Assembly (NCBI RefSeq): GCF_001524445.2
Contig: NZ_CP013418.1
Location: forward strand, 2,046,001 to 2,110,000
Origin: Burkholderia savannae
GTDB taxonomy: Bacteria; Pseudomonadota; Gammaproteobacteria; Burkholderiales; Burkholderiaceae
Direction of reading: 5' to 3'
DNA: 64,000 nt
The position numbers and the translations under genes are program-made. The notes below the pieces were generated by a model, which did not search any database, was not told the origin of the DNA, and saw nothing but the letters and a program-made list of their open reading frames with translations. Of the stretch, positions 42,835-63,957 are shown piece by piece; the first letter of the stretch is position 1, and every line of letters starts with the position of its first letter.

Positions 42835-45800
42835 TCATTCGTTCGCCGCTACCCCGTGCTCGCCCGATTCGCGATCGCGCTCGACAGCCCGCCGCCCGCG
42901 CCGCCCGAGCGACGCGACCACCTGAAACGCGACCGGCGCGAACACGAGCCCGAACAGCGTCGCGGCGAGCACGCCGCCGAACGCGCCCGTGCCGATCGAG
43001 CGGCGGCTCTCGGCGCCCGCGCCCGTCGCGCTCACGAGCGGCACGACGCCGAGCACGAACGCCATCGACGTCATCACGATCGGCCGAAAGCGCGCCGACG
43101 CCGCGTCGACCACCGCCTGGCGCAGCGCGACGCCGCGCGCGTGCAGATCGCGCGCGAACTGCACGATCAGGATCGCGTTCTTCGCGGACAGCCCGATCAC
43201 CGTAATCATCGCAACCTTGAAATACACGTCGTTCGGCATGCCGCGCAACTGCACGGCCGCCACCGCGCCGATCACGCCGAGCGGCACGACGGTCAGCACC
43301 GACAGCGGAATCGTCCAGCTTTCGTACAGCGCGGCGAGCGCCATGAACACCGCGAGCACGGATAGGCCGATCAGCAGCGGCGTCTGCCGCGCGGCGACGG
43401 TTTCCTCGCGCGCCGCGTCGACCCAGTCATAGCCGACGCCCGTCGGCAGGTTCGCGGCGAGCCGCTCCATTTCGGCCATCGCCGCGCCGAGGCTGTATCC
43501 GTTCGCCGGACGGCCGACCACGTCGAGCGACGGATAGCCGTCGAAGCGGTTCAGCGCGACGGGCCCGACGCTCCAGCGCCGCGACGCGATCGCCGACAGC
43601 GGCACCATGTCGCCCGTCTTGTTCGGCACGGAAAGCGCCATCAGTTGATCGTCGGTGCTGCGCGCGCCGGCGTCCGCTTCGATGATCACGCGCCGCATCC
43701 GCCCCGCCGCCGGAAAATCGTCGACGTAGTTCGAGCCGAGCAGCCCGCCGAGCAGGCCCGCGATCCGCTCGAACGGCACGCCGAACGCGTACGCCTTCGC
43801 GCGGTCGACGTCGAGCTCGACGCGCGGCGCGTCCGGCAAATCCTCGGTGCGCACGGACGCGAGCGCCGGATCGGCCTTCGCCGCGTCGGCGAGGCGCTCG
43901 CGCGCCGCCTTCAGCACGTCGACACCGATGCCGCCGCGATCCTCGAGCCGCAGCGTGAAGCCGTCCGAATGCCCGATGCCGGGCACCGACGGCGGCAGCG
44001 ACGCATCGACGTCGCCGTCGCGAATCCGCGCGAACGCGCCGTTCAGCCGATCGCGCAGCGCGGCCGCATCGACGCCGCGCTTCGCCCAGTCCTTCAGCTC
44101 GACGAACGCCATCGCGACGTTCTGCCCGCTGCCGGCGAAGCTCCAGCCGATCACGCTCGTCACGTTCGCGACGGCCGGCTGCGCGTGCAGGATCGCCTCC
44201 ACCCGCTCGACGACCGCCATCGTGCGCGCCTGCGTCGCGCCCGCCGGCAGCTGGATCATCACCTGCAGTTGCCCCTGGTCCTCGGTCGGCAGGAAGCCGT
44301 TCGGCATCGCCCAGTACAGCGCCGCGCCGCAGACGAGCAGCGCCGCGTAGATCGCGGCCATCGGCCCGATGCGCGCGACCGTGCGCGCGGTGAGCGAGCG
44401 ATAGCCCGCCGACGCGCGCGCGAAGCCCGCCGCGAAGCGGTCCGCCGCCCACGCGCCGAGCCCGCGCACGCCGCGCCGCCGCCCGATCCGCGCCCGCGCG
44501 CCGCCGGGCGGCAGCGGCTTGAGCAGGTTCGCGCACAGCGCGGGCGTGAGCGACAGCGCCATGAACGACGATACGAGCATCGACGCGATCATCGCGACCG
44601 AGAACTGCCGATAGATCCCGCCGACGCCGCCCGGAAAGAACGCCATCGGCACGAACACCGCGGTCAGCACGGCCGTCACGCCGACGATCGCGCCGACGAT
44701 GCGCTTCATCGCGCGGCGCGTCGCCTCGCGCGGCGACACGCGCTCCTCCTCCATCACGCGATGCACGCTCTCGACGACGACGATCGCATCGTCGACCAGA
44801 ATGCCGATCGCGAGCACGAGGCCGAACATCGTGAACACGTTGATCGACAGCCCGAACGCCCACATCGCGACGAACGCCCCCATCAGCGTGACCGGAATCA
44901 CGATCGTCGGCACGAGCGTGCAGCGCAGGTCGCGCAGGAACAGCCACATCACGAAGAACACGAGGACGATCGCCTCGACGAGCGTCAGCACGACCTCGTC
45001 GATCGCGATGCGGACGAAATGCGCGCCGTCGAACGGAATGGCCACCGCGACGCCGGGCGGCAGCCGCTTCGACAATTCGGCGAGGCGCGCGCGAATCGCG
45101 TTCGACGTCTCGAGCGCGTTGCCGCGCGGGCCGAGCTGGATGCCGACCGTCGCGGCCGTCTTGCCGTTCAGCCGCGACGAGAACGAATAGTCGTCGCGGC
45201 CGAGCTCGACGCGCGCGACGTCCGCGAGCCGCACGACGGAGCCGTCCGGCTTCGCCTTCAGCACGATCCGGCCGAACTCGGCGGGCGATGCGAGCTGGCC
45301 CTTCACGATCACCGACGCGGTCGTCTGCTGGCCGGCGACGAACGGCGCATCGCCGATCGCGCCCGCCGTCACCGCCGCGTTCTGCGACGCGACGGCCGCG
45401 ATCACGTCGTCGGCGCCGAGCCCGTACTCGCGCAGCTTCATCGGGTCGAGCCAGATCCGCAGCGCCTCGTCGGCGTCCCACAGCTGCGCGGAGCCGACGC
45501 CCGGCGTGCGCTTCAGCTCGCGCAGCACATAGCGGCTCAGGTAGTCGCTCAGTTGCGCGGAATCGCGCGTGCCGTCGGTCGACGTCAGCGCGACGAGCAT
45601 CAGGAACGTGTTCGCCGCCTTGAACACGCCGATGCCCTGCTGGACGACCTGCTGCGGCAGCCGCGGCTCGACCTGCTTGAGCCGGTTCTGCACGTCGACG
45701 AGCGCGAGGTCCGGATCGGTGCCGGGCGCGAACGTCACGTCGATCTCGAGGTTGCCGTGGCCGTCGCTGCTCGTCTCGTAATAGAGCAGCCCGTCCGCGC

Positions 45801-46011
45801 CGTCGAGGCTCTCCTCGATGATGCTGCCGACGTCGCCGTCGACCGTCTCCGTCGACGCGCCCGGATAAGTCGCGTTGATCACGACGCGCGGCGGCGCGAG
45901 GCGCGGATACTGCGCGACCGGCAGTTGCGGAATCGCGAGCACGCCCGCGACGACGATCGCGAGCGCGACGATCCACGCGAAAACGGGGCGGTCGATGAAG
46001 AACGACGGCAT
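42835..46011 (-). CDS. RND-family efflux pump inner-membrane transporter (HAE1 type)
   Basis: A 1,058-residue proton-driven exporter of the AcrB/MexB family. It starts FFIDRPVFAWIVALAIVVAG as these pumps do and shows two large periplasmic loops and twelve helices; GILVDDAIVVVESVHRVMEE carries the paired Asp residues of the proton relay in helix 4, and FFPGGVGGIYRQFSVAMIAS is the conserved mid-protein motif. It is the last gene of the minus-strand operon that begins at yejA, starting 13 bases after the small protein gene. No membrane-fusion protein or outer-membrane channel lies in the window, so it must borrow them. Substrate unknown; context suggests a peptide-derived compound. Confidence 0.93.
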   Translation of the reverse strand: MPSFFIDRPVFAWIVALAIVVAGVLAIPQLPVAQYPRLAPPRVVINATYPGASTETVDGDVGSIIEESLDGADGLLYYETSSDGHGNLEIDVTFAPGTDPDLALVDVQNRLKQVEPRLPQQVVQQGIGVFKAANTFLMLVALTSTDGTRDSAQLSDYLSRYVLRELKRTPGVGSAQLWDADEALRIWLDPMKLREYGLGADDVIAAVASQNAAVTAGAIGDAPFVAGQQTTASVIVKGQLASPAEFGRIVLKAKPDGSVVRLADVARVELGRDDYSFSSRLNGKTAATVGIQLGPRGNALETSNAIRARLAELSKRLPPGVAVAIPFDGAHFVRIAIDEVVLTLVEAIVLVFFVMWLFLRDLRCTLVPTIVIPVTLMGAFVAMWAFGLSINVFTMFGLVLAIGILVDDAIVVVESVHRVMEEERVSPREATRRAMKRIVGAIVGVTAVLTAVFVPMAFFPGGVGGIYRQFSVAMIASMLVSSFMALSLTPALCANLLKPLPPGGARARIGRRRGVRGLGAWAADRFAAGFARASAGYRSLTARTVARIGPMAAIYAALLVCGAALYWAMPNGFLPTEDQGQLQVMIQLPAGATQARTMAVVERVEAILHAQPAVANVTSVIGWSFAGSGQNVAMAFVELKDWAKRGVDAAALRDRLNGAFARIRDGDVDASLPPSVPGIGHSDGFTLRLEDRGGIGVDVLKAARERLADAAKADPALASVRTEDLPDAPRVELDVDRAKAYAFGVPFERIAGLLGGLLGSNYVDDFPAAGRMRRVIIEADAGARSTDDQLMALSVPNKTGDMVPLSAIASRRWSVGPVALNRFDGYPSLDVVGRPANGYSLGAAMAEMERLAANLPTGVGYDWVDAAREETVAARQTPLLIGLSVLAVFMALAALYESWTIPLSVLTVVPLGVIGAVAAVQLRGMPNDVYFKVAMITVIGLSAKNAILIVQFARDLHARGVALRQAVVDAASARFRPIVMTSMAFVLGVVPLVSATGAGAESRRSIGTGAFGGVLAATLFGLVFAPVAFQVVASLGRRGRRAVERDRESGEHGVAANE

Positions 46012-46024
46012 GCGTGCGGCTCCG

Positions 46025-46321: not shown

Positions 46322-46383
46322 CGATGTCTCCGTGATTGCGCAATCGTCGTTCGAATGGGGCGCGCCGGCATCCGCTCGCGCGC

Positions 46384-46959
46384 TCAGCGCGGCGCAAACG
46401 GCGGCGCGTCGGCGAGCCGCGCCATGTGCAGCACGTCGACCAGCTCGCCGGCGCGGATCGCGTAGCCGCGCGAGCGCCCCTCCTCGGTGAAGCCGAAGCG
46501 GCGATACAGCGCGATCGCACGCGCGTTGTCGGCGAACACCGTGAGCTCGACGCGGCGCAGGCCGAGCGCGCGGTCCGCGCAGTCGACGATCGCGGCCATC
46601 AGCGCGCCGCCGACGCCGCGCCCCGCATACGCGTCGTGCACGCCGATGCCGAGCAGCGCGCAGTGCGCGCGGCGGCCGGAAAACGTCTCGAGCCCGCCGT
46701 GACCGACGACGCGCCCGTCCACCTCGGCGCACAGGTTGACGCCGCCGCCTCGCCGCGCCGCGACCCGCATGAGCCACGCGGCGACCGCGTCGGCCGACGC
46801 GTGCGGCATCGCGAGCGTGCCGCGCTGCACGAGCGGCTGGTTGCGCATCTGCGCGATGGCCGCCGCGTCCGCCAGCTCGGCCGCACGCACGATCACGCGG
46901 CTCGCGCCCGCGCGCGACGGGTTCGCATCGGTCCGATCGCCTGCTCGTTGCGTCGTCAT
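46384..46959 (-). CDS. GNAT-family N-acetyltransferase (second of two)
   Basis: A 191-residue acetyl-CoA-dependent acetyltransferase. The acetyl-CoA loop is AYAGRGVGGALM (R-x-x-G-x-G/A) and the C-terminal beta-strand/helix is ELTVFADNARAIALYRRFGF, a RimI/PhnO-like arrangement. The ATG at 46959 overlaps the stop of the preceding GNAT gene by four bases. The two GNATs are paralogues with similar layout (compare HRRGVGGALM in the other), so a local duplication is likely. In this peptide-handling operon, acetylation of an amino terminus or amino side chain of an imported or processed peptide is plausible; MccE-type detoxification of processed microcin C is a known precedent for the family. Confidence 0.9.
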   Translation of the reverse strand: MTTQRAGDRTDANPSRAGASRVIVRAAELADAAAIAQMRNQPLVQRGTLAMPHASADAVAAWLMRVAARRGGGVNLCAEVDGRVVGHGGLETFSGRRAHCALLGIGVHDAYAGRGVGGALMAAIVDCADRALGLRRVELTVFADNARAIALYRRFGFTEEGRSRGYAIRAGELVDVLHMARLADAPPFAPR

Positions 46960-47516
46960 GCCGGAGTCTCGGAGGGGGCCGCCGCAAGCGGCGGCGAGTC
47001 CTTCAGGCGCGCGATCAGACAGCCGTCGACGAGCACGCCGTCGCGCAGCGCCGCACCGCGCTGCGTCGCCTCGATCTCGAAGCCGAACTTGCGATGGAAC
47101 GCGAGCGCGACGAAATCGTCCGCGTAGAGCTGCGCCTCGATCCTGCGCAGCCCGAGCCAGTCGTCGGCGATCGCGAGCGTCTCGCGCATCAGCGCGCCGC
47201 CGACGCCGCGACGATGCCACGCGTCATGCACGGCGATCGAGATCGACGCCGCATGCGAGCGCCGCAGCTTGCCCGGCGCGAGCTCGCTCCAGCCGACGAG
47301 CGCCTCGCCGATCCATGCGCCGAGCGCGTATTGCTCGCGCATCAGCGCATCGAGCCATTCGCGCCGCCTGTCGAGCGATGCGTGAGGCGCGCTCGCGAAG
47401 CGCCCGTCGATCGACGGCTGCCGCGCGAGCGCGTGCAGCGCGTCGGCGTCCGCCGCGCGCAGCGCGCGGATCGTCACGTCCGGCGGCGGCGGTGAACTCG
47501 CGGCGCGCTCCATCAC
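46956..47516 (-). CDS. GNAT-family N-acetyltransferase (first of two)
   Basis: A 186-residue GNAT with the acetyl-CoA signature AWHRRGVGGALMRE and the downstream strand/helix EAQLYADDFVALAFHRKFGF. GTG at 47516 or the immediately following ATG at 47513 may be the start. It begins one base after the TAA of the tldE-like gene and ends overlapping the second GNAT, so the genes are translationally linked. The substrate is unknown; context suggests a peptide product of the TldD/TldE pair. Confidence 0.9.
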   Translation of the reverse strand: MMERAASSPPPPDVTIRALRAADADALHALARQPSIDGRFASAPHASLDRRREWLDALMREQYALGAWIGEALVGWSELAPGKLRRSHAASISIAVHDAWHRRGVGGALMRETLAIADDWLGLRRIEAQLYADDFVALAFHRKFGFEIEATQRGAALRDGVLVDGCLIARLKDSPPLAAAPSETPA

Positions 47517-47517
47517 G

Positions 47518-48888
47518 TTACAGCGTCAGCTCGAACGAGCGCGCGAGCAGGCCCGGCAGCCTCGCGCCGCCCGTCGGCCGCTCGCCCCACGATTCGTCGC
47601 TCAGCAGCACTTCCGGCGTCGCGCCGAGCTGCTCGAGCTCGCCGCCGAGCAGCCGGTACAGGCTGTCGTCGAAGCGCATCGCATCGACGGGCGCGACGAT
47701 CCTGCCGCCTTCGGCCCAGAACGTCGCGAAGCGCGTCATCCCGGTGATCCGGCAATTCATCTTGTCCGAGAAATTCAGATACCAGAGATTGCCGATGTAG
47801 AGGCCCGTGTCGAGCGCCGCGAGCACGTCGGCGTCGGCGAGCGCGCCGCCCGCGATCGACAGCGTCTCCGGCATCTCGTCCGCAGACGCGCCGTTCGGGC
47901 TCAGGCCGTGCTCGCGCGCGGTGCGCGCGCTCACGAGCCGCCCCGCGCTGCGCCCCTCGACGACGAGCGGCACGCTGTCGCGGCGATAGCCGTCCGCGTT
48001 GAACGCGGGCGCGACGCCGAGCGAAAAATCCTCGGTGATCGTCACGCGCGGATCGAGCGCCGCCTCGCCCGCGTGCAGCCGGTGCAGGCTGCTGCGCGCG
48101 CTCGCGTTCGCGCGCGCCGAAAAGCCGTCCCAGCGCAGCAGGCGGACGATCTCCGCGACCGCGGCCGGCGCGAGATACGCGCGGTAGCGGCCGGGCGCGA
48201 GCGCCTTCGGCGCGCGGCCGAGCACCGGCAAGCGCGCGGCGGCCTCCTCGACCTTGCGCGCGAACGCGGCGTCGCTCCACGCGTCGCCCGCGTAGACGGT
48301 CTTGATCGCACGGCCGCTCGGGTCGTACAGCGACCAGCTGAAATCGAAATTCTCCACCTCGTGCCAGCCGCGGCTGCCCGCCGACGACGCGAAGCCGCGC
48401 ACGAGCGAGCCGCCCGCGTAGAAGCCGACGAAGTCGAGCCCGCGCGCCGCTTCGGCGACGACGCGCGCGAGCGCGTCGGGGTCGGGCAGGCTGCCGGCGC
48501 GGCGGGTCGACTGCCGCCACGTCGACGTATCGAACAGCAGATGCGGATCGTCGGGCGCGTCGCGCAGGCCGTCGCGCAGCGTCGCGAGCGCATCCGCGAG
48601 CTCGGGCACGTCCGTCGCCGGATCGCCGCTCACCGTCTGCGTGAACGACGCCTGCCGCGCGTGCGCCACGAGCCGCACGCCGAGCTTGCCTTGCAGCACG
48701 CGCCCGGTCTGGCGAATTCTGCCCGCGTTGAAGCGGATGAAATCGGACGTCTCGCCGGCGAACCACAGCAGCACCGTCTCGCCCGGCTGCTTCAGTCGTT
48801 CGGCTTCGTCCGCGAGCCGCGCGAAATGCGCGTGCCAGTCGATCGGGGCGATCGGGGCCGCGCGCCCCGGCTTCGCGAAGTCGGTCAT
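47518..48888 (-). CDS. TldE/PmbA-like metalloprotease subunit
   Basis: A 456-residue protein of the TldD/PmbA fold, length as in E. coli TldE/PmbA (450). It lacks the HExxxH motif, as TldE does, and is expected to pair with the TldD-like protein encoded immediately upstream into a heterodimeric protease that threads unfolded peptides. Segments such as GFYAGGSLVRGFASSAGSRG and the C-terminal TGLYIGNLWYLNFSDKMNCR belong to the family. Its ATG and the tldD stop share one base (TGATG). Characterised TldD/E removes the microcin B17 leader and degrades CcdA. This pair looks divergent and is probably additional to a housekeeping set. Confidence 0.85.
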   Translation of the reverse strand: MTDFAKPGRAAPIAPIDWHAHFARLADEAERLKQPGETVLLWFAGETSDFIRFNAGRIRQTGRVLQGKLGVRLVAHARQASFTQTVSGDPATDVPELADALATLRDGLRDAPDDPHLLFDTSTWRQSTRRAGSLPDPDALARVVAEAARGLDFVGFYAGGSLVRGFASSAGSRGWHEVENFDFSWSLYDPSGRAIKTVYAGDAWSDAAFARKVEEAAARLPVLGRAPKALAPGRYRAYLAPAAVAEIVRLLRWDGFSARANASARSSLHRLHAGEAALDPRVTITEDFSLGVAPAFNADGYRRDSVPLVVEGRSAGRLVSARTAREHGLSPNGASADEMPETLSIAGGALADADVLAALDTGLYIGNLWYLNFSDKMNCRITGMTRFATFWAEGGRIVAPVDAMRFDDSLYRLLGGELEQLGATPEVLLSDESWGERPTGGARLPGLLARSFELTL

Positions 48889-50321
48889 CACGCGCCTCCG
48901 AACACGTCGACGTCGGCGAACACGCAGGCGGGCGACGCGTGGCCGACACGGATGATCTGCGCGGGCTCGCCCTTGCCGCAGTACGGCGTGCCGTACACGC
49001 GGAACGTGCTCGCGTCGCCGACCGCGCGCAGGCTGCGCCAGAAGCTCGCGGAAACGCCGCGATAGTTCGGCCGCTTGACGACCTGCGTCAGCTCGCCGTT
49101 TTCGATCAGTTGCCCGAATTCGCAGCCGAACTGGAATTTGTTGCGGTGATCGTCGATCGACCACGACGTGTTCGTGCGCATCATGACGCCGCGCTCGATG
49201 CCCGCGACGAGCGCCTCGAACGAATGCGAGCCGGGCTCGACGTTCAGGTTCGCCATCCGGTCGATCGGCGGCCGGTTCCAGCTCGACGCGCGCGCGTTCG
49301 CGACGCCCGGCAAGCCCGCACGCGCCTGCGACAGCGCGCCGCCGAGCGGCCGCTCGAGCACGCCGTCGCGGATCAGGTATTGCTTGCGCGCGGCGCTGCC
49401 GTCGTCGTCGAACGCGTACGACGCCGCCTCGCCGGGCATCGCGGGATCGAACGTGACGTTCAAGAGCGGCGAGCCGTACCGGTACGAGCCGAACATCTCC
49501 GGCTTCACGAAGCTCCAGCCCGCGAAATTGCGCTCGTCGCCGAGAATCCGGTCGAGCTCGAGCGGGTGGCCGATCGATTCGTGGATCTGCAGCATCATCT
49601 GGTCCGGCATCAGCAGCAGGTCGCGTGTTCCGGCGGGGCAGTTCGGCGCGGCGAGCAGTTGCAGCGCCTCGCCGGCGACGCGCGCGCCCGCGCCGTCGAA
49701 GCCGTAGCGCGCGAGCACGTCGAGGCCGCCCTGCGCGAGCGTGCCCGCGTTGCCGAGCGTGCGCACCTGCGTATCGCCGCGCGCGTGCGCGACGACGCTC
49801 AGCTGCGGCATCACGTGGCGAAAGCGCTGATCGATCCGCACGCCGTCGCTCGTCACGTAGAGCTGATCGGCATGCACGAGCATCACGCCCGCCGTGCGCT
49901 CGACGATCCGCGCATCGACGGCCGCCGCCGCGCATTCATGCGCGAGGCGCTCGATCCATTCCGCGCGGGACGGCAGCGCCTCGTCCGCGTGCGGCGACGC
50001 ATAGCCGCCGCTCGCGTCCGGCCGCGCAACCGCGCGATGGTCGATCAGCGACAGCGCCGCGCTCGCCTTCGCGCGCGCGGCGGCCGCATCGAGCGCCGCC
50101 TGCAGGCCGGCCGCCGACAGATCGGCCGTCGCCGCGTAGCCGGCGCCCGCGCCCGACCACGCAATCAGCATCGCGCCGCGGTCGCGCACGCTCGCGAGCG
50201 GCTGCGCGACGTCGTTGCGCACCGCGTGTTCGTCGATCCGTTCGTCGACGACGCGCAGCGACCAGAAATCGGCGTCGCTGCGCAATAGTCGGGCGGCTTG
50301 CGCCCAGCGTTCGTCAATCAT
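48888..50321 (-). CDS. tldD: TldD-like zinc metalloprotease subunit
   Basis: A 477-residue TldD homologue (E. coli TldD has 481). The catalytic HExxxH is intact in MMLQIHESIGHPLELDRILG, and the family's late segments are present (NLNVEPGSHSFEALVAGIER; FGCEFGQLIENGELTQVVKR with a metal-ligating Cys). TldD with TldE degrades small, mostly unstructured peptides in the cytoplasm. The ATG at 50321 overlaps the end of yejF by eight bases, tying it to the peptide importer; such linkage of a TldD/E pair to a Yej transporter suggests that imported peptides are its substrates. A GTG-like opening at 50339 adds six residues and is less likely. Confidence 0.9.
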   Translation of the reverse strand: MIDERWAQAARLLRSDADFWSLRVVDERIDEHAVRNDVAQPLASVRDRGAMLIAWSGAGAGYAATADLSAAGLQAALDAAAARAKASAALSLIDHRAVARPDASGGYASPHADEALPSRAEWIERLAHECAAAAVDARIVERTAGVMLVHADQLYVTSDGVRIDQRFRHVMPQLSVVAHARGDTQVRTLGNAGTLAQGGLDVLARYGFDGAGARVAGEALQLLAAPNCPAGTRDLLLMPDQMMLQIHESIGHPLELDRILGDERNFAGWSFVKPEMFGSYRYGSPLLNVTFDPAMPGEAASYAFDDDGSAARKQYLIRDGVLERPLGGALSQARAGLPGVANARASSWNRPPIDRMANLNVEPGSHSFEALVAGIERGVMMRTNTSWSIDDHRNKFQFGCEFGQLIENGELTQVVKRPNYRGVSASFWRSLRAVGDASTFRVYGTPYCGKGEPAQIIRVGHASPACVFADVDVFGGA

Positions 50322-51948
50322 CCGCCCTCTCTCGCACACTGCGCCGCGGCGTCAGCATCGACGACGCCAGCAGCGACCGCGTATACGGGTGCGACGGCGC
50401 GCCCAACACGTCCAGCGTGTCGCCCGCCTCGACCACGCGCCCTTCCTTCATCACGAGCACCCGATGGGCCATCGCCCGCATCACCGCCAGGTCGTGCGTG
50501 ATGAACAAGTAGCTGAGTTTGTACTTTTTTTGGAGATTCGTCAGCAGGTTCAACACCTGTTTCTGGATCGACACGTCGAGCGCGCTCGTCGGCTCGTCGA
50601 GCACGAGCAGTTCCGGCTCGACCGCGAGCGCGCGCGCGATCGCGATCCGCTGCCGCTGGCCGCCGGAAAACTCGTGCGGATAGCGCAGCATCGCCTCGGC
50701 AGGCAGGCCGACTTCCTGCAACAGCCCGGCGATCCGCGCACGCCTCGCGTCGCCGGTGACTTCCGGCCGATGCACGGAAAGCCCCTCGCCGACGATCTGC
50801 TCGATCGTCATCCGCGGCGACAGCGAGCCGAACGGGTCCTGGAACACGACCTGCATGCGCCGGTACAGGCCGCGCCGGCCGCGCGCCGAGCGCAGCGCTT
50901 CGAGCGGCAGCCCGTCGATCTCGATTCCGCCCGCCGCCGGCCGCTGCAGCCCGAGCACGGCGGACGCGAGCGTCGATTTGCCCGACCCCGATTCGCCGAC
51001 GATGCCGATCGTCTCGCCGCGCCGCAGCGCAAACTGCGCGTCGTGCACCGCGCGAAACGTCGTCTTGCCGAACAGCGCGCGCCAGCCTTTCGGCGCGATC
51101 CGGTAATCGACCGCGAGCGACTTGACGTCGAGGATCGTCCGCGCGGACGGCGCGACGGTTTCGATCGCGCGCTGCGGCTCGCTGTCGAGCAGGCGCTGCG
51201 TATACGGATGCTGCGGATTCGCGAACAGCGCATCGGTGTCGCCCGTCTCGACGAGCTCGCCGTGCTCCATCACCGCGACGCGCTGCGCGAAGCGCCGCAC
51301 GAGATTCAGATCGTGCGTGATCAGCAGCACCGCCATCCCGCGCGCCGCCGCCTCCTGCTCCTGCAGCTCGATCAGCAGATCGACGATCTGCTCGCGCACC
51401 GTCACGTCGAGCGCGGTCGTCGGCTCGTCGGCGAGCAGCAGGCGCGGCCGGCACGCGAGCGCCATCGCGATCATCGCGCGCTGCCGCTGGCCGCCCGACA
51501 GTTGATGCGCGAAGCTGTCGATCCTGCGTTCGGGCTCCGGAATGCCGGTGCGCCGCAGCAGCTCGATTCCGCGCGCGCGCGCCTCGCCCGGCCGCAACCC
51601 TTCGTGCAGCCGCAGGCTTTCGGCGATCTGCTTGCCGATCGTGTAAAGCGGGTTGAGCGCCGTCATCGGCTCCTGGAACACCATCGCGATGTCCGCGCCG
51701 CGGATGCCGCGCATCTGCTGCTCGGTCTTCGTCAACAGGTCTTCGCCGTCGAACAGCATCCGTCCGGACAGCGTCGCGTGCTGCACGAGCCGCAGGATCG
51801 ACAGCGCGGTGACACTCTTGCCCGAGCCGGATTCGCCGACGAGCGCGACGCGCTCGCCGCGCGCGATCGACAGACTCAGTTCGCGCACCGCGATCTTCTC
51901 GCCGAACGCCGCGGAGAAACCGTCGATTTCGAGAAGCGGCCGGTTCAT
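50314..51948 (-). CDS. yejF: Peptide ABC importer dual ATPase, YejF
   Basis: A 544-residue protein with two complete ABC ATPase domains (about 5-265 and 280-530). Walker A is GESGSGKSVT in the first and GESGSGKSTLA in the second; ABC signatures are LSGGQRQRAM and FSGGQRQRIA, with Walker B LLLADEPTTALDV and LLVLDEPTSALDV. The fused dual-ATPase form and gene order yejA-B-E-F match the E. coli Yej system, which imports peptides including microcin C. It overlaps yejE by four bases and tldD by eight. Confidence 0.93.
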   Translation of the reverse strand: MNRPLLEIDGFSAAFGEKIAVRELSLSIARGERVALVGESGSGKSVTALSILRLVQHATLSGRMLFDGEDLLTKTEQQMRGIRGADIAMVFQEPMTALNPLYTIGKQIAESLRLHEGLRPGEARARGIELLRRTGIPEPERRIDSFAHQLSGGQRQRAMIAMALACRPRLLLADEPTTALDVTVREQIVDLLIELQEQEAAARGMAVLLITHDLNLVRRFAQRVAVMEHGELVETGDTDALFANPQHPYTQRLLDSEPQRAIETVAPSARTILDVKSLAVDYRIAPKGWRALFGKTTFRAVHDAQFALRRGETIGIVGESGSGKSTLASAVLGLQRPAAGGIEIDGLPLEALRSARGRRGLYRRMQVVFQDPFGSLSPRMTIEQIVGEGLSVHRPEVTGDARRARIAGLLQEVGLPAEAMLRYPHEFSGGQRQRIAIARALAVEPELLVLDEPTSALDVSIQKQVLNLLTNLQKKYKLSYLFITHDLAVMRAMAHRVLVMKEGRVVEAGDTLDVLGAPSHPYTRSLLASSMLTPRRSVRERADD

Positions 51949-53060
51949 CGCGGACCTCCTCCGAACGCCGAGCCGCGCGTGCGCGTATCGAGCGCGTTGC
52001 GCAGCGCGTCGCCCATGAACGTGAGCAGCAGCAGCGTGACGACGAGCGCCGCGAACGCCGACATCGAGATCCACCACGCGTCGAGATTGTTCTTCCCTTC
52101 CTGCAACAGCTCGCCCAGGCTCGGCGTCGGCGGCGGCACGCCGAGACCGAGAAAATCGAGGCTCGTCAGCGACAGGATCGCCGCGCTCATCCGGAACGGC
52201 AGGAACGTGATGACGGGCGTGAGGCTGTTCGGCAGCACGTGCCGCCAGATGATCTGCCAGTTCGTGAGCCCCATCGTGCGCGCGGCCTTCACGTAGTCGA
52301 GCGCGCGGTTGCGCAGGAACTCCGCGCGCACGTAGTCGGACAGCACGAGCCAGCCGAACATCGACAGCAGGACGAACAGCAGCCACAGCGTCGGCTCGAA
52401 GATCGCCGCGAAGATGATCAGCAGGTACAGGTCGGGCAGCGCGCTCCAGATCTCGATCAGGCGCTGCCCGATCAGATCGGCGCGGCCGCCGTAGAAGCCC
52501 TGCAACGCGCCCGTGAGCACGCCGATCGTGACGCCCGACACCGTCAGCGCGATCGCCATCAGCACCGACAGCCGGAAGCCGTACAGAAGACGCGACAGCA
52601 CGTCGCGGCCGAACTGGTCGGTGCCGAGCCAGTTGCTCGCGGACGGCGGCGCCGGATACGGGCGCGACGCGAAATAGTCGATCGTGTCGTAGCGATAGCG
52701 GTTCGGCGGGTAGATCGCGAAGTTGCCGTTCGCTTCGATCTTCGAGCGGATGTACGGATCGAGATAATTCGTCTTCGCCGGAAAATCGCCGCCGAACTGC
52801 GCCTCCGGATAATCCTTCAGGATCGGAAAATAATAATGCCCTTCGTAGCGGACGACGAGCGGCCGGTCGTTGGACAGCACGTCGGCGAACAGGCTGATCG
52901 CGAACAGCGCGGCGAAGATCACGAGGCTCCAGTAGCCGAGCCGCTGGCTGCGAAAGCGCAGCCACGTGCGCCGCCACGGCGACGGCGACGCCGCGCACGC
53001 GACGCACGCGGGATCAGTGGTCCACGCGGTGGAATTGGATGCGGGGGTCGACGAGGACAT
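51945..53060 (-). CDS. yejE: Peptide ABC importer permease, YejE
   Basis: A 371-residue inner-membrane permease. A long N-terminal region precedes the first helix (about residue 45), and a periplasmic domain of about 80 residues (YEGHYYFPILKDYPEAQFGG onward) is typical of YejE. The EAA loop with RTMGLTNWQIIWRHVLPNSL contacts the ATPase. The ATG at 53060 lies 47 bases inside the 3' end of yejB, an unusually long overlap. Confidence 0.92.
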   Translation of the reverse strand: MSSSTPASNSTAWTTDPACVACAASPSPWRRTWLRFRSQRLGYWSLVIFAALFAISLFADVLSNDRPLVVRYEGHYYFPILKDYPEAQFGGDFPAKTNYLDPYIRSKIEANGNFAIYPPNRYRYDTIDYFASRPYPAPPSASNWLGTDQFGRDVLSRLLYGFRLSVLMAIALTVSGVTIGVLTGALQGFYGGRADLIGQRLIEIWSALPDLYLLIIFAAIFEPTLWLLFVLLSMFGWLVLSDYVRAEFLRNRALDYVKAARTMGLTNWQIIWRHVLPNSLTPVITFLPFRMSAAILSLTSLDFLGLGVPPPTPSLGELLQEGKNNLDAWWISMSAFAALVVTLLLLTFMGDALRNALDTRTRGSAFGGGPR

Positions 53061-54066: not shown

Positions 54067-54078
54067 CGTCGCTCCCCG

Positions 54079-55995
54079 CTAGGCGGCCGGTTCCGGCTCT
54101 TGCGCAACCGCGCCGGCCGCCGGCTTCTTCCTGAACCAGTAATCGATGATCCAGTCCTCGTATTGATAGGATGCCGGAATGACCGGCGGATGCCCATACG
54201 TCGTCTTGTAGGCGATCCGCGCGTTCGGCAGGTAATACTGCGGCACGAGGATGTACAGGTTGATCAGCACGCGGTCGAGCGCGTGCGTCGCCGTCTTCAG
54301 CTCGTCGAGCGTGTTCGCCGCGAGCGCCGCTCGGATCAGCGCGTCGACCGCCTTCGAGCGCACGCCCGGGTAGTTCTCCGAACCGACTTCCGACGCCGCC
54401 GCGCTGCCGAAGCGGCGCACGAGCTCGGCGCCGGGAATCGTGACGGGCGGATAGATGAGCGTCGTCATGTCGTACTGGAAGTTGTCGAGGCGCTTCTGAT
54501 ACAGCGCGCTGTCGATCTCGTGCATGTGCGCATGGATGCCGAGCATCCCGAGCGCCTGGATGTACGGCAGGATCAGCCGGTCCATGCCCGGCTCGTCGTC
54601 CATGATCTCGATCGTCATCGCCGTGCCGCTCGCGTCGCGCAGCGCGCCGTCGCGATAGTGCCAGCCGGCCTGCGCGAGCAGGTCGCGCGCCTCTTTCAGG
54701 TTCGCGCGCAGCGAGCCGGGCGGCACCGTCGACGGCTGCTTGACCATCGGGCCGAACACTTCGGGCGGCAGTTCCGCGCGAAACGGTTCGAGCAGCGCGA
54801 GCTCCTCGCTGCTCGGCATTCCGGACGCGCCGAACGGGCTCGCCTCCCAGAAGCTGTTCGTGCGGCGATATTGCCCGTAGAACATCATCCGGTTCATCCA
54901 GTCGTAATCGAACGCGAGCGCAAGCGCATGACGCACGCGAGCGTCGCGGAACTTCGGTTCGCGCATGTTGATGAGGAAGCCCTGCATCTGCGCGGGGCCG
55001 TCCGGGAACTCACCCTTCTTCAGCATGCCGTTTCGGAAGTTCTTGCCGACGTAGCGGCGCGCCCATTGCGTCGAGCTGTATTCCATCCGCACGTCGACAT
55101 CGCCCGCCTTGAACGCTTCGAGCATCGTGTATTGATCGAGATACAGCTTGAACGACACGCGCGCGAAGCGGAACATCCCGCGCCGCGTCGGCAGATCGGC
55201 CGCCCAGTAACGCGGATTGCGCACGTAGGCGATCTGCTTGTCGTTCTTGCGCTGCTCGATCAGGTACGCGCCGCTCGCGATCGGCGGCTCGCTCACGATC
55301 TGGTCGAACGGCGGCCGCGTGCCGTCCGCCCGCATCCCCCATTTCGGCGAGAACACCGGCAGGTCGCCCGCGATCAGCGGAGCCGCGCGTTCGGGGCGCT
55401 TGAAGTCGAAGCGCACCGTCAGCCGGTCGACAACCGTCGCGCGCTTGATGACCGCGAACTGCGCGTTGACGAGCGGCGACGCCTGCGGGCTCGTCAGCAT
55501 GTCGAACGAATACTTGACGTCGGCCGCGGTGATCGCCTCGCCGTTCGAGAAGCGCGCGGCCGGATTGATGTGGAACGTCGCCGAGCCGCCGTCGGGCGCG
55601 ACGTCGACGTTGTCCGCGATCAGCGGATATTCGGAGGCGAGCTCGTCCCAGCTGCGCTGCATCAGCGTGTCGAACATCAGGTTCTGGATGTCCGGCGCGG
55701 GCGAGCCGCGCACGAGGAACGGATTCAACGAGTCGTAGCTCTGCGCCTCGTTGTAGTTTTCGAAATTCAACGGGCCGTCGTTCGGCGCGTCGGGGTCCGC
55801 ATAATCGAAATGCGTGAAGGTCGGCGGATACTTCGGCTCGCCGTATTGCGCGAGCGCCGTGGCGGCGAGCGCGTGCGACGGCGCGGCGGCGCTTGCGACG
55901 AGCATCCCGCACGCGATGGCCGCGATCCGCACGGCCGCCCAAGCGCGCATCGCCCAGCTCGCGTCGAACGGCAAACGCAACTTCGTTGGTCTCAT
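54079..55995 (-). CDS. yejA: Periplasmic peptide-binding protein, YejA
   Basis: A 638-residue solute-binding protein of the SBP family 5 (OppA/DppA fold) and of YejA length. The N terminus carries a signal peptide after a short basic region (hydrophobic run about residues 20-45, ending in SHALAA). Family segments include WDELASEYPLIADNVDVAPD and YSFDMLTSPQASPLVNAQFA. It delivers substrate to YejBEF. The ATG at 55995 has AGGTGA close upstream. A terminator at 56135-56180 separates it from the receptor gene, so it should have its own promoter at about 55996-56134. Confidence 0.93.
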   Translation of the reverse strand: MRPTKLRLPFDASWAMRAWAAVRIAAIACGMLVASAAAPSHALAATALAQYGEPKYPPTFTHFDYADPDAPNDGPLNFENYNEAQSYDSLNPFLVRGSPAPDIQNLMFDTLMQRSWDELASEYPLIADNVDVAPDGGSATFHINPAARFSNGEAITAADVKYSFDMLTSPQASPLVNAQFAVIKRATVVDRLTVRFDFKRPERAAPLIAGDLPVFSPKWGMRADGTRPPFDQIVSEPPIASGAYLIEQRKNDKQIAYVRNPRYWAADLPTRRGMFRFARVSFKLYLDQYTMLEAFKAGDVDVRMEYSSTQWARRYVGKNFRNGMLKKGEFPDGPAQMQGFLINMREPKFRDARVRHALALAFDYDWMNRMMFYGQYRRTNSFWEASPFGASGMPSSEELALLEPFRAELPPEVFGPMVKQPSTVPPGSLRANLKEARDLLAQAGWHYRDGALRDASGTAMTIEIMDDEPGMDRLILPYIQALGMLGIHAHMHEIDSALYQKRLDNFQYDMTTLIYPPVTIPGAELVRRFGSAAASEVGSENYPGVRSKAVDALIRAALAANTLDELKTATHALDRVLINLYILVPQYYLPNARIAYKTTYGHPPVIPASYQYEDWIIDYWFRKKPAAGAVAQEPEPAA

Positions 55996-56180: not shown

Positions 56181-56212
56181 CGTCGAATGCCAAAGGACGA
56201 TGCGAAACGGCG

Positions 56213-59038
56213 TCAGAACTTATAAGTCGCGCCGACCTGGATCACCCGCCCGTAGTACATGTACAGCGACTGGTCGTAGCCGTTCTGGTTGAGCGCGTTC
56301 TGCCAGACCGGATCGAACGGCGGCGCACGGTCGAAGATGTTGTTGATCCCGCCGTACAGCGTCCAGTTCTTGAAGCCGGTGTAGCTCGCGTACAGGTTGA
56401 ACTGGCTGTACGAGCCCACGTGGTCCGCCGCCTGCGTCGGCGCGGCCACGCCGAGCGCCTGTGCGTACGGGCCCGTGAATTCCCAGCTCAGCGTCGCGTT
56501 CCACTTGCGATACGCCCAGTTCAGCGACGTATTGCCCTTCCAGCGCGGGATGCTCGCGCCGAAAGGCTGCGTGATCGCGAAGTTGTTGCCCGCCGAATCG
56601 ACGGTCGCCGAGCCCGGGAAGCCGATGTTGAAGTGATGCACGTATGCCCAGTCGGCCGACAGCGTGAACGTGCCGTACTTCGTCGGCAGCGCCTGGCGGA
56701 ACGTCATCTCGAAGCCATCGGTTTCGAGCGTGCCGAGGTTCTGATACGGCAGCACGACGTATGTGATCTGCCCCGTCGCCGGATCGCGCACGACCTGCGA
56801 CGGGTTGTTCGCCGCGATCACCGAGTTCAGGCTCGCCTGGCCGATCACGTTGTCGATGAAGATCTTGTAGAAGTCGAAGCCGAAATCCGTATAGCGCGTC
56901 GGCGAAGCCTGGAAGCCGAGGTTGATGTTGCGCGTGCGTTCGGGCTGCAGGCTCGTGTTGCCGGTCTGCAGCGTGTTGACGAGCGTGTTGCCGAACGTTT
57001 GCAGGCCGATGTTCTGCGACGGCGTGTTCTCGACGAACGTCGGCGCGCGGAAGCCGCGATTGTACGAACCGTACATCGTGAATTCCTTGATCGGCTGGTA
57101 GCGCAGCGCAAAGCGGGGCGAGAACGCGCCGCCGAAATCGCTGTAATGGTCGTAGCGGCCCGATTGGCTGAACGTCAGGTTCTTGATGATCGGGATATCG
57201 AACTGATAGTAGACCGCCGCGACGTTGCGCGAGCCGTTCACCGATTGCGTCAGCGGGTTCAGCACCTGCCCGCTCAGCGCCTCGGAGCCCTGCCCGATGA
57301 ATTCGCTTTCGTGCAGGAACTGCGCGCCGAGGCCGAAGCCGACGTCGCCCGTGGGCAGCTTGAACAGGTTCGGCGTTGACAGCGTCGCATCGACCGCGTC
57401 GAGCTTCGACACGCCGAGGTTGGTCGTCGACATGTACAGCCCGTTGAACGCGTTGGGCGTCGCCGACGGGTTCGCGAAGTTCAGCGTGCCGTTCTGATAG
57501 ATGTCGTTGACGACGGACGCGTTCAGCACGTTATTGAACGTGTTGGACACGACGCTCTGCGAATGCGAGTAGGCCGCCGACCAGTCCCAATCGCCGTACG
57601 GCAGCGTGAACGAACCCTTGACGCCCGTCGCGGCGCGCCAGAAGTTCGAGCTCGTCCGGTCGGACGCCGCAGCCGGAAACGTATAGGCGAGCGGCGTATC
57701 GACGCCGAACGGGTTGTACGGATTGCTCGCGGGCACGACCGAATTGAACTGGCTCAGCTTGCCGGTCGCCGGATTGAGGACGAGGCTCGGCGACGTCGGG
57801 CTGCCCACCGTCAGCACGCCGTTGTTCTGCACCGTCGTATTGTTGCTTTCCCACAGATCGGCGAACGCTGTCGTCTTGTCGTCGATCTTGAAGTCCGCAT
57901 GCACCTTCGCGCTCAGACGCTCGGTCCACGGCGCGATCGACGTCGATTCCGCCGAATTGAAACTGCACACGGTGCCGCCCATGCCGGCACCCGCGCTCAG
58001 ATAGTTGCTCGCGGCGGGGCGCACGGCGCCGCCGAACGGGCAGCCGCTGAGCGCCTGCGCGGTCGCGCCACCGTTGGTCTGCCAGAACGACGGCGCGAGC
58101 AGCGAGAGGCCGCCCGCCTGGTTCGTGAAATCCTGGTTCTTCGTCGTGTCGCGATCGGCGATCGTGAAGCCGTTCGCCTTGTAGTAGCTCGCGGCCGCCG
58201 TGATGTTGAAGCGGTCCGAGTTCAGATCGCCGAAGCCGCCGAGAATGCTGAACTTCGTCGTGCCGTCGCCGCCTTGCGTCGCGCCCGAGTAGCTGCCGTC
58301 GAGCTGCAGCCCCTGATAGTTGTGCTTCGTGATGATGTTGACGACGCCCGCGATCGCGTCCGAGCCGTACTGCGACACGGCGCCCGTCTTCACGATCTCG
58401 ATGCGGTCGATGATGTTGAGGGGAAGCGTGTTGAGGTCGAAGAACGTGTCGGTGCCGTTCGACGCGAACGCGTACGGCGCGACGCGCTGGCCGTCGACCA
58501 TCACAAGCGAGTATTTCTCGCTCAGGCCGCGCAGCGCGATGCCCGCGCCGCCCGCGGCGAAGCCGTTCGTCTGCCCTTCGCTCCAGCTGCTCGCGGAGTT
58601 CGCCGACACGCCGCGCAGGAAGTCCGCGACGTTCGTGTAGCCGCTGTCCTGGATGTCCTTCGCGGTGACCGTCTGCACTTGCTGGAAGCCGACCTTGTCG
58701 GCACTGCGAATCAGCGAGCCCGTCACCTCGAAGCGCTTGATCTGCGCGACGCCGTTCTTCGCGGCCGGTGCAGCCGGTGCAGCCGGCGTCGCGCCCGCCG
58801 CTTCGGCGGCGCCCGAGGCGGCCGCGGGCGCCGCCGCGGCCGGCGCGGAAACCGCGCCCGTCGCGCTCGCCGCCGCATCCGCCTGCGCGAGCGCGACGCT
58901 CGCGCCTTGTGCCGATGCCGCCGCGCCGGCAGATGCCGGCTGGCTCTGCGCGAACGCGGGCGCCGCCAGCGTGGCCGTCAACGCCAACTCGGCCCAGACG
59001 ATCCGCTTGATCGCCAACGCCAATGCTCTTTGCTTCAT
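56213..59038 (-). CDS. TonB-dependent outer-membrane receptor
   Basis: A 941-residue receptor: signal peptide ending APAFA before QSQPAS, an unusual Ala-rich low-complexity stretch (about residues 27-95), a TonB-box-like [11 protein letters not shown], a plug domain ([20 protein letters not shown] through the [11 protein letters not shown] segment), and a 22-strand barrel ending in Phe (VGATYKF). It resembles the large nutrient-type receptors of proteobacteria rather than classical siderophore receptors. The ATG at 59038 follows GAGAGGGGAAAG. It has its own terminator, lies directly upstream of yejA, and has a divergently placed XRE-cupin regulator and a TonB/ExbB/ExbD set nearby. A peptide or amino-acid conjugate is the likely ligand (inference). 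Confidence 0.92.
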
Positions 59039-59352: not shown

Positions 59353-59928
59353 TCAGAACAACCTGGGCGTCCCCACCCAGACGACCAGCGCCTCGCTGTC
59401 TCCGCCGTTGCGCCACGCATGCGGCGTCGTCGATTCGTAATGCGCGGTGTCGCCCGCCGCCAGCGAGAACGTCACGTCCTCCAGCGTCAGTTCCACGCGG
59501 CCGCTCACCACGTACAGAAACTCCTCGCCCGCGTGCGTCGTGACTTCCGAAAGCGGTTGCGCGGCCGGCATCCGCACGAGAATCGCGTCGAGTTGCCGGC
59601 CGTCGACAACGTTCGTCAGGCGCGCGAACGCGTTCGTCGAGTTCGCGAGGCTGAAATACTGCAGCGCCTCGCTGCGGCATACCGAACGCGCTTCGGTCGG
59701 CGCATCGACGAAGTAATGCATCGTCACGCCGAGCGCACGCGCGATCCCGACGAGCGACGTGATAGACGGCGTCGCGCGTCCGCGCTCCACCTGCGACAGA
59801 AACGGCTTCGAAATGCCGGCCGCCGCCGCTGCTTCGTCGAGCGTGAGCTTGAGCCGCTGGCGCAGCGCTCGTATCTTGTTTCCAATCGAGGCTGCGACTA
59901 CCGCCGATTCGTCGAGTGGCAAAACCAT
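59353..59928 (-). CDS. XRE-family transcriptional regulator with C-terminal cupin domain
   Basis: A 191-residue regulator: helix-turn-helix at about residues 14-70 (KIRALRQRLKLTLDEAAAAA, then GISKPFLSQVERGRATPSIT), and a cupin at about 110-190 (THAGEEFLYVVSGRVELTLE, then GDTAHYESTTPHAW). This PuuR/SutR-like architecture senses a small molecule through the cupin and usually controls an adjacent uptake or catabolic gene; the receptor and yej operon downstream are the obvious candidates. The ATG at 59928 is chosen since the domain begins there; the longer opening upstream is not supported. Confidence 0.9.
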   Translation of the reverse strand: MVLPLDESAVVAASIGNKIRALRQRLKLTLDEAAAAAGISKPFLSQVERGRATPSITSLVGIARALGVTMHYFVDAPTEARSVCRSEALQYFSLANSTNAFARLTNVVDGRQLDAILVRMPAAQPLSEVTTHAGEEFLYVVSGRVELTLEDVTFSLAAGDTAHYESTTPHAWRNGGDSEALVVWVGTPRLF

Positions 59929-60201
59929 GGCAACACACAATCCCGCGATCAAGAATCGTTTTTGATGAAGAAGCCGGCTGCGCTGCGCCCGCGCAGCCCG
60001 CATCGCGAAGCGGCGACCCGCCATACGCGATGCGGGCCGCGCGGGCGACGTGCACGCCTTGCGCAAGCTGTCCGGGAACGTCCCGAGCCCGGATGCGCCG
60101 CGCAAGATGGCACCGTTCGTTTCACCGATCAGCAAAGCCGCTCCTTTCCCCGTGTTTCGCCGATAACCGCCGTTCCCGCCCCTCCAAGCGCGCGAGCGCC
60201 G

Positions 60202-61401: not shown

Positions 61402-61418
61402 GGGACACGCTCGCTTCG

Positions 61419-61844: not shown

Positions 61845-61853
61845 CGTCGCCTC

Positions 61854-62276: not shown

Positions 62277-62289
62277 GGCGCACCCCGCT

Positions 62290-63186: not shown

Positions 63187-63258
63187 ACCCCACTCCAAAT
63201 TTTTCGTTGAACTGATTAACCGGGTTCGCTCCCGATCCTGTCCGGCCCGCGTACGGGC

Positions 63259-63957
63259 TCAGTTCAGGTTGAACGAGAACGGAACCTGCACGCGCACCGA
63301 CTGCCCTTGCGCTACGCACTTGAACTGCTTGACCGCATTGAACGCCGCACGATCGAGCACCGGATCGGCCGATTGCGCGACGCGCTCGCTCGTGATGCGC
63401 CCTTCCGCATCGACGACGAATTCGATCGTCACGTCGCCCGTGATGTTGTTCTCCTGGGCTTCCTTCGGATACTGCATCGATGCGCGGATCTGGTCGGAAT
63501 TCGGACACACGACGCCCACTTCATGGCTGACCGCCTTCGCCGGCGCGGGCGCGGCGGCCACCGGCGCCTGCACGGCGGGCGCGGATTGCACGGGCGCAGC
63601 TTGGTGCGTGATCGTCGGCTGGGTCGGCGCCTGCACCGGCACTTCCGGCGGCGGCACGAACGGAGGCGGCGGCGGCGCGAACTTCGGCGGCGGGAGCTTG
63701 ACCGTCGGCATCGGCGGCGGGGGCGGCGGCTTCACCGGTTCGATGATGCGCGTCTCGATCGGATGCTGGATGACTTGCACGACCTTCGTCGCGAGGCCGT
63801 TGAGGAGCGCATAAACCAGCACGATGTGCAGCGCGAGCACGATCGCGAGGCCGCCGAAGCGCCGAGCCGGGTTCTGCTGCCTTTTGCCGAATTCGCGCGG
63901 ACGACCGAGCCGAGCGAGTCCGTCGTTTGAAACAGCCAAGCCTTCGTCGACTTTCAT
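63259..63957 (-). CDS. tonB: TonB energy-transducing protein
   Basis: A 232-residue TonB: cytoplasmic N terminus, one membrane helix (LAIVLALHIVLVYALLNGLA, with the conserved His), a Pro-rich periplasmic spacer (about residues 70-150) and a C-terminal TonB domain (YPKEAQENNITGDVTIEFVV). The ATG at 63957 follows a GGGGGTG-type site. It is 72 bases upstream of exbB and probably heads the operon; its promoter lies at or beyond the window's right edge. Confidence 0.93.
   Translation of the reverse strand: MKVDEGLAVSNDGLARLGRPREFGKRQQNPARRFGGLAIVLALHIVLVYALLNGLATKVVQVIQHPIETRIIEPVKPPPPPPMPTVKLPPPKFAPPPPPFVPPPEVPVQAPTQPTITHQAAPVQSAPAVQAPVAAAPAPAKAVSHEVGVVCPNSDQIRASMQYPKEAQENNITGDVTIEFVVDAEGRITSERVAQSADPVLDRAAFNAVKQFKCVAQGQSVRVQVPFSFNLN

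What the first reader, a model, noticed from the sequence alone, without database searches (positions are those of the whole stretch)
42835..63957. Candidate complete peptide uptake-processing-export system: TonB receptor, TonB/ExbBD, YejABEF, TldD/TldE, two GNATs, RND pump
Seen: ten minus-strand genes from yejA (55995) to the RND pump (42835) are packed with overlaps of 47, 4, 8, 1 and 4 bases at the yejB/E, yejE/F, yejF/tldD, tldD/tldE and GNAT/GNAT joints. Upstream are a TonB-dependent receptor, a cupin regulator, a TPR protein and tonB-exbB-exbD-exbD. Known: Yej imports peptides including microcin C; TldD/TldE cleaves small peptides and the microcin B17 leader; GNATs such as MccE acetylate processed microcin C. 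Inferred: the locus imports a modified peptide across both membranes, trims it, acetylates it, and exports a product. It could be nutrient scavenging, immunity to a rival's antibiotic, or recovery of a metallophore or self-made peptide. I know of no characterised system with this whole set.
Basis: partly seen in the sequence, partly recalled or inferred. Interest (0 to 1): 0.75.

Follow-up and report, generated by a model that had tools for sequence, protein, structure and literature searches.

The report
Conserved peptide-import operon in Burkholderia kin
Many soil bacteria related to Burkholderia keep a row of genes that look built to pull a peptide-like molecule in through both membranes, with optional enzymes that would cut and cap it and a pump beside them; what the molecule is remains unknown.

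Summary
The genes and all five overlaps (47, 4, 8, 1, 4 bases) are real. One correction: eight genes (yejA to GNAT2) are packed; the RND pump lies 372 bases further on here, against 0-21 bases in 41 of 44 measured joints. The linkage is not chance: yejF sits directly before tldD in 61 of 80 related loci, overlapping it in 54 of 60 measured joints, in Burkholderia, Paraburkholderia and Trinickia. The genome keeps a separate Yej and two other TldD-family genes, so this is an extra set. But it is not one indivisible system: 13 fetched loci have receptor, Yej and pump with no TldD/E or GNAT, and TldD/E stands without Yej in 19 of 80. The stable core is receptor-YejABEF-RND; TldD/E is an added module, and GNATs were seen only with it (0 of 14 cassettes without). 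Best reading: uptake of a peptide-like ligand, cleavage by an intact TldD/E, N-acetylation of a fragment, with the pump as safety valve or re-export. Ligand, order of steps and export are inferred. New variant of a known kind.

The parts
63259..63957 (-). TonB
   Evidence: Pfam TonB_C 59.2 bits
62290..63186 (-). ExbB
   Evidence: Pfam MotA_ExbB 111.5 bits
61854..62276 (-). ExbD, first copy
   Evidence: Pfam ExbD 97.3 bits
61419..61844 (-). ExbD, second copy
   Evidence: Pfam ExbD 89.9 bits
60202..61401 (-). TPR-repeat protein with N-terminal hydrophobic stretch, function unknown
   Evidence: Pfam TPR_16 and others
59353..59928 (-). HTH-cupin regulator, PuuR-like but far under the PuuR cut-off
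   Evidence: HTH_3 and Cupin_2; PuuR 55.1 against cut-off 211
56213..59038 (-). TonB-dependent outer-membrane receptor, ligand unknown
   Evidence: Plug and barrel; 57-69% identical to the 25 receptors aligned from the same place in other loci
54079..55995 (-). YejA-type substrate-binding protein
   Evidence: SBP_bac_5; closest solved sequences include E. coli YejA and MbnE
53014..54066 (-). YejB permease
   Evidence: BPD_transp_1
51945..53060 (-). YejE permease
   Evidence: BPD_transp_1, OppC_N
50314..51948 (-). YejF, two-domain ATPase
   Evidence: ABC_tran, two stretches
48888..50321 (-). TldD, catalytic subunit; HExxxH at residue 247, third metal ligand Cys 448
   Evidence: PmbA_TldD domains; motif and alignment to E. 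coli TldD
47518..48888 (-). TldE, partner without the motif
   Evidence: PmbA_TldD_3rd; model pLDDT 92.6 matches TldE/PmbA structures
46956..47513 (-). GNAT acetyltransferase 1
   Evidence: Acetyltransf_1
46384..46959 (-). GNAT acetyltransferase 2, 42% identical to GNAT 1
   Evidence: Acetyltransf_1; identity
42835..46011 (-). AcrB-type RND permease, no adaptor or outer-membrane channel among the 17 proteins scanned
   Evidence: ACR_tran 1050 bits; NF000282 above cut-off; AcrB/MexB structures

Best explanation
A dedicated uptake route for a peptide-like ligand. The TonB-ExbBD motor drives the receptor; YejA catches the ligand in the periplasm and YejBEF carries it whole into the cytoplasm (inferred from families and linkage). 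In genomes that carry it, the TldD/TldE peptidase cuts the ligand there (active site shown, substrate inferred), and the GNATs then acetylate the amino group of a product (inferred). The AcrB-type pump, borrowing an adaptor and channel from elsewhere, clears ligand or product from the periplasm (inferred). The ligand is most likely a foreign modified peptide taken for food, with the cutting, capping and pumping modules guarding against harmful cargo; which modules a genome keeps would follow the ligands it meets.
For: Linkage: tldE next to tldD in 80 of 80 loci; yejF directly upstream in 61 of 80; of those 61, RND in 54, GNAT in 45, receptor seen in 54 (loci are cut at 10 kb). Overlap of yejF and tldD by 1-8 bases in 54 of 60 joints, the window included. 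Nested modules: of 75 cassettes with all four yej genes, GNAT in 45 of 61 with TldD and 0 of 14 without. A second, different motor (ExbB-like, ExbD-like, and a third gene that is TonB_C by Pfam in L030, the one scanned) sits between receptor and yejA in L026, L030, L033, L048, L053 and L137, and before yejA in L052, L059, L068, so the motor was replaced yet stayed linked. TldD: HExxxH and the C-terminal Cys in 83 of 83 rows (81 distinct loci); HExxxH in 0 of 82 TldE rows (80 distinct). The genome has a separate Yej (YejA 54% identical; locus) and two other TldD-domain genes, so this copy is spare for a special use.
Against: No ligand, expression or mutant data. The core occurs without TldD/E or GNAT in 13 of the 15 fetched loci of genomes that have cassette-type yejA but no tldE, and TldD/E occurs without the importer in 19 of 80, so neither needs the other. 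The 0-of-14 GNAT result leans on lineage: 13 of those 14 loci come from the Burkholderia-genus search, and there GNATs are also missing from most loci that do have TldD. The receptor model was too poor to compare (pLDDT 59.1).
Confidence: 0.5

Rival explanations
1. Metallophore uptake and recycling: receptor and Yej import a peptide metallophore, TldD/E or GNAT modify it to free the metal, and the RND pump returns the remainder.
For: MbnE, the methanobactin binding protein, is among the closest solved relatives of the window's YejA (323 bits), and receptor plus binding protein plus exporter is a metallophore-like set. FiuC-type acetylation of ferrichrome is a recalled parallel; the search for it was seen as a listing only.
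Against: E. coli YejA scores the same (322 bits) and two other family members higher (362 and 332), so the likeness is not specific. No Fur-like site better than chance in five intergenic stretches (a stricter scan of the window also found none; consensus recalled). No MNIO or metallophore gene among the 17 proteins scanned.
Confidence: 0.17
2. Plain nutrient scavenging of peptides, with TldD/E as a digesting peptidase and the GNATs and RND pump only neighbours.
For: TldD/E degrades unfolded peptides (PMC5810440, passages); YejABEF is called a promiscuous peptide transporter (PMC10128002, abstract and passages); the cupin regulator is nearest to PuuR, a metabolic regulator, though far under its cut-off.
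Against: The RND gene stays beside the importer with or without TldD/E: 54 of 61 yejF-tldD loci and 13 of 15 fetched loci without tldE; a neutral neighbour should drift away.
Confidence: 0.2
3. Immunity to a Trojan-horse peptide antibiotic: imported toxin is cut, acetylated (as MccE does to processed microcin C) and pumped out.
For: MccE acetylates processed microcin C (PMC7680869, passages); GNAT appears only with TldD; a different GNAT lies directly before tldD in two loci without the importer (L007, which is the same locus as L142, and L140).
Against: A pure immunity locus has no reason to carry its own receptor, motor and importer. Of seven proteins scanned against PADLOC the TldD, TldE, GNATs, pump and TPR protein match nothing; the regulator matches only HTH models, at most 44.4 bits. 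GNATs resemble PRK10140 below its cut-off, not a named immunity family.
Confidence: 0.1
4. Uptake of muropeptides from other cells through Yej, as YejBEF-YepA does in Agrobacterium.
For: YejBEF can carry muropeptides (PMC9790009, passages).
Against: There the binding protein is YepA, reported only from Alphaproteobacteria; no peptidoglycan enzyme is among the 17 proteins scanned.
Confidence: 0.03

Closest known systems
Fus and YddB/PqqL 'protease-associated import systems' (PMC6793856, passages)
   Same: TonB-dependent receptor genetically tied to a peptidase that would process what is imported
   Different: There the peptidase is a periplasmic M16 protease; here it is TldD/E, with no export signal visible to the eye, together with a peptide ABC importer, GNATs and an RND pump
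YejABEF peptide importer (microcin C, phazolicin; PMC10128002 and PMC7680869, passages)
   Same: All four subunits, order yejA-B-E-F
   Different: Second copy with its own receptor and motor; another Yej is elsewhere in the genome
TldD/TldE of E. coli (PMC5810440, passages)
   Same: HExxxH plus Cys in TldD, partner with the TldE fold and without the motif
   Different: Distant subfamily: 72.5 bits against an NCBIfam cut-off of 513 for TldD, and no PDB sequence match for TldE
Methanobactin uptake MbnT-MbnE (MbnE named; MbnT recalled)
   Same: Receptor plus YejA-like binding protein
   Different: No biosynthesis gene among the 17 proteins scanned, and added peptidase, GNATs and RND
Microcin C self-immunity (MccE acetylase, MccC pump; PMC7680869, passages)
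   Same: GNAT and exporter acting on a Yej-imported peptide
   Different: MccC is not an RND pump (recalled); here the importer and a receptor are in the locus, and no microcin C genes were named among the 17 proteins scanned

Membership tests
YejABEF ABC transporter | binding protein, two permeases and one two-domain ATPase in order A-B-E-F | tested here: met
YejABEF ABC transporter | carries peptides | not testable with these tools
   needs uptake assay
TldD/TldE peptidase | HExxxH and third Cys ligand in TldD; HExxxH absent from TldE | tested here: met
   83 of 83 TldD rows (81 distinct) with both; HExxxH in 0 of 82 TldE rows (80 distinct); alignment to 5nj5
TldD/TldE peptidase | TldE has the PmbA/TldE fold | tested here: met
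   model pLDDT 92.6; 5njb chain B E 3.5e-25, TM 0.74
TldD/TldE peptidase | passes the NCBIfam TldD equivalog cut-off | tested here: not met
   87.4 against 635 and 72.5 against 513: a sister subfamily, not the E. coli equivalog
Fus-type protease-associated import | TonB-dependent receptor in the locus | tested here: met
   whether it is of the FusA/YddB kind was not tested
Fus-type protease-associated import | periplasmic M16 protease | tested here: not met
   no M16 among the 17 proteins scanned
Iron-regulated siderophore uptake | Fur box upstream | tested here: inconclusive
   best matches no better than random stretches in five regions; the consensus is recalled, and of the stretch before tonB only 43 bases were scanned
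Tripartite RND efflux | RND permease of the AcrB class | tested here: met
Tripartite RND efflux | adaptor and outer-membrane channel in the operon | tested here: not met
   none among the 17 proteins scanned nor among five flank proteins of two other loci
MccE-type immunity acetylase | GNAT acetylates a processed peptide | not testable with these tools
   GNAT family only

The most novel reading that the evidence does not exclude
A family-wide pathway that deliberately takes in peptide natural products made by rivals or hosts, cuts them with a dedicated TldD/E, caps the fragments by acetylation and uses its own RND pump as a safety valve: an 'eat the antibiotic' system assembled from interchangeable modules.
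Probability: 0.2. Interest if true: 0.78.

Novelty: new variant of a known kind. Interest (0 to 1): 0.52.

Why it matters
TldD/E has few known natural substrates (recalled), and Yej is best known as the door through which peptide antibiotics such as microcin C and phazolicin enter (passages). A conserved operon that couples a receptor, Yej, TldD/E, GNATs and an RND pump gives a direct handle on both questions: whatever binds this receptor and YejA should be the substrate of this TldD/E. It would also show import and export machinery being kept as one unit around a peptide ligand.

Tried and rejected
Ten-gene count: the extra gene would be a 98-aa ORF without family match; rejected. Precursor peptide inside the block: joints are mostly overlaps or short gaps, the widest being 34 bases (yejA/yejB), 168 (tldE/GNAT1) and 63 (GNAT1/GNAT2), so there is little room; not searched for elsewhere in the genome. 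The neighbouring NRPS-PKS as source of the ligand: related loci have the amidase followed directly by the porin gene without it (L005, L006; L144); rejected as a necessary partner. UvrA-like gene next to tldDE (L029, L040) as a functional clue: the same downstream genes (clusters c12, c13, c17, c20) flank cassettes elsewhere, so it looks like a site where the importer was lost; set aside. Fur regulation: not supported. Receptor structure search: model too poor, not run. tRNA-Arg at 46547-46636: inside GNAT2, no Rfam match in 38000-64000; treated as a false call.

Spread beyond Burkholderiaceae: TldE relatives in 29 of 368 other sampled genomes of the class and 42 of 398 of the order. I fetched stretches around 40 of these 71 (up to 20 kb, shorter at contig ends). 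No receptor-Yej-TldD/E row was seen, but partial likenesses were: L122 has a receptor-like ORF (31%) directly before tldD, L112 has two peptide-ABC-like ORFs (26% to YejE, 45% to YejF) three ORFs before tldD, L120 an ABC-ATPase-like ORF (31% to YejF) beside tldD. The simple ORF picker there sometimes missed tldD or tldE, so this is not proof of absence.

Novelty: no listing from the searches (open-licence PMC only, titles and abstract starts) pointed to a paper on this combination; none of those papers was read whole.
Full report
WHAT WAS CLAIMED AND WHAT IS THERE. The minus-strand genes and their overlaps are as described. From upstream to downstream: tonB, exbB, two exbD, a TPR protein, an HTH-cupin regulator, a TonB-dependent receptor, yejA, yejB, yejE, yejF, tldD, tldE, two GNATs and an AcrB-type RND permease; family matches are. 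Gaps in the window: tonB-exbB 72, then 13, 9, 17; TPR-cupin 273; cupin-receptor 314; receptor-yejA 217; yejA-yejB 12; then overlaps 47, 4, 8, 1; tldE-GNAT1 4; overlap 4; GNAT2-RND 372. So eight genes form the packed block. A terminator-like hairpin lies in the GNAT2-RND gap (46231-46203), but such hits are no more frequent than in shuffled sequence (5 found, 8.7 expected).

THE GENOME. The window lies on a 2.82-Mb contig of a 7.43-Mb genome in three contigs. Its closest named loci are Burkholderia; the species was not identified. The genome has a second yejABEF on contig 1 (YejA 54%, YejB 68%, YejE 72%, YejF 63% identical) and two other TldD-domain genes on contig 1; the one in L147 is 26% identical to the window's TldD. 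The window's set is therefore an extra one.

CONSERVATION. A scan of GTDB species genomes with TldD found 534 relatives, of which the best 80 were kept: mostly Burkholderia, Paraburkholderia, Trinickia and Caballeronia. tldE follows tldD in 80 of 80. yejF lies directly before tldD in 61 of 80; among those 61, RND in 54, a GNAT in 45, receptor seen in 54, TonB/Exb genes seen in 20 (the last two are limited by the 10-kb flanks). yejF and tldD overlap by 4 or 8 bases in 53 of 60 measured joints and by 1 in one more; in six they are 14-31 bases apart. yejB and yejE overlap by 47 bases in 77 of 78. GNAT2-RND is 0-21 bases in 41 of 44, otherwise 48, 61 and 372 (the window). Starts were picked by a script, so single values may be off by a few codons.

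MODULES. In 65 genomes of the genus, TldE was found in 25 and a YejA at least 73% identical in 42; 22 genomes have both, 3 have only TldE, 20 only YejA (Fisher p 0.003, which ignores kinship). I fetched 15 of the 20 YejA-only loci: in 13 yejF is followed by RND with no TldD/E or GNAT between; 2 lack RND too. Over 75 loci with all four yej genes: TldD+GNAT+RND 44, TldD+RND 10, RND only 12, TldD only 6, TldD+GNAT 1, none 2 (one of the 13 drops out there for an incomplete yej match). On a tree of YejB, E and F the fewest changes are 4 for TldD, 7 for GNAT and 5 for RND (quick tree, SH-aLRT only; the RND label also depends on where a locus is cut). On a tree of TldD+TldE the cassette/stand-alone label needs at least 8 changes (it warned of long branches). 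Importer and TldD/E thus come apart repeatedly in both directions. Even among the window's nearest kin they differ: L150 has no GNAT match but an intact pump, and in L149 the pump gene is in fragments and no GNAT matches.

The pump is the surprise. It stays next to the importer with or without TldD/E, and in L008 (the same locus as L141) it follows tldE where the importer is gone. GNATs were never seen in a cassette without TldD (0 of 14, against 45 of 61), and a different GNAT lies before tldD in two loci lacking the importer (L007 = L142, and L140). This fits cleavage followed by acetylation, but lineage may explain part of it.

TONB MOTOR. In L026, L030, L033, L048, L053 and L137 an ExbB-like gene, an ExbD-like gene (30-32% identical to the window's) and a third gene, TonB_C by Pfam in the one scanned (L030), lie between receptor and yejA; L052, L059 and L068 have the trio before yejA with the receptor match on the other strand. 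Two different motors tied to the same receptor-Yej pair argue that the receptor feeds Yej.

ENZYMES. TldD keeps HExxxH (residue 247) and the third-ligand Cys (448); both are present in 83 of 83 rows (81 distinct loci), while HExxxH is in 0 of 82 TldE rows (80 distinct). The residues match those shown for E. coli TldD (His262, His267, Cys454; PMC5810440 passages). TldE has no sequence match in the PDB even at E 1, but its model (pLDDT 92.6) best matches PmbA/TldE structures. The GNATs are 42% identical to each other, nearest to the solved PA1377 acetyltransferase and to PRK10140 below its cut-off. The pump is of the AcrB/MexB class.

LIGAND. Unknown. YejA is as close to E. coli YejA as to the methanobactin-binding MbnE. 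The receptor's only PDB matches at E 1e-5 are weak and mainly to the plug domain, and its model failed. No Fur-like site stands out. The receptor (51-67% identity to the window in 52 loci) varies far more than YejB (86-94% in 61 loci), as expected if ligands differ between species, though surface receptors often vary for other reasons.

PAPERS. Passages only were read of PMC5567900, PMC6793856, PMC9040570, PMC5810440, PMC10128002, PMC9790009 and PMC7680869; other papers were seen as search listings.

VERDICT. Real and conserved; the searches made found no description of the set.

Noticed in passing
window 20741-38890 (+): NRPS-PKS cluster: 2OG-Fe dioxygenase, 4195-aa NRPS-PKS, MFS, MbtH, 1070-aa NRPS. 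Gene order recalls the glidobactin/syrbactin cluster (name recalled; a syrbactin cluster is reported in a Burkholderia, PMC9040570 passages). Absent between amidase and porin in L005, L006 and L144, so probably inserted here.
   Followed up: partly
L143: 4223-12568: A third Yej set: a 208-aa gene (not scanned), TonB receptor, yejA (51%), yejB, yejE, then a GNAT and a PhzF-like gene; no yejF was picked there. Receptor-Yej-GNAT linkage thus recurs without TldD/E.
   Followed up: partly
L125, L126, L128, L130, L131, L132: A second receptor, 55% identical to the window's, downstream of the RND gene in loci without TldD/E.
   Followed up: no
L029: 4026-9941; L040: 4029-9965: A UvrA-like protein (L029) and its relative of about 1970 aa (L040) directly before tldDE that stands without the importer.
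   Followed up: partly
L122, L112, L120: Outside Burkholderiaceae: a receptor-like ORF directly before tldD (L122), peptide-ABC-like ORFs near tldDE (L112) and an ABC-ATPase-like ORF beside tldD (L120).
   Followed up: no
window 46547-46636 (-): ARAGORN calls a tRNA-Arg inside GNAT2; Rfam finds nothing there. Probably false.
   Followed up: yes
window 41900-42350: Short repeated unit between amidase and pump, seen as a repetitive translated frame.
   Followed up: no
window 40109-41695 (-): Amidase with a signal-like N-terminus, above the NCBIfam PRK08137 cut-off, near the pump in L005, L006, L079 and L144 too.
   Followed up: partly
L034, L057: Two yejA copies in a row before yejB.
   Followed up: no
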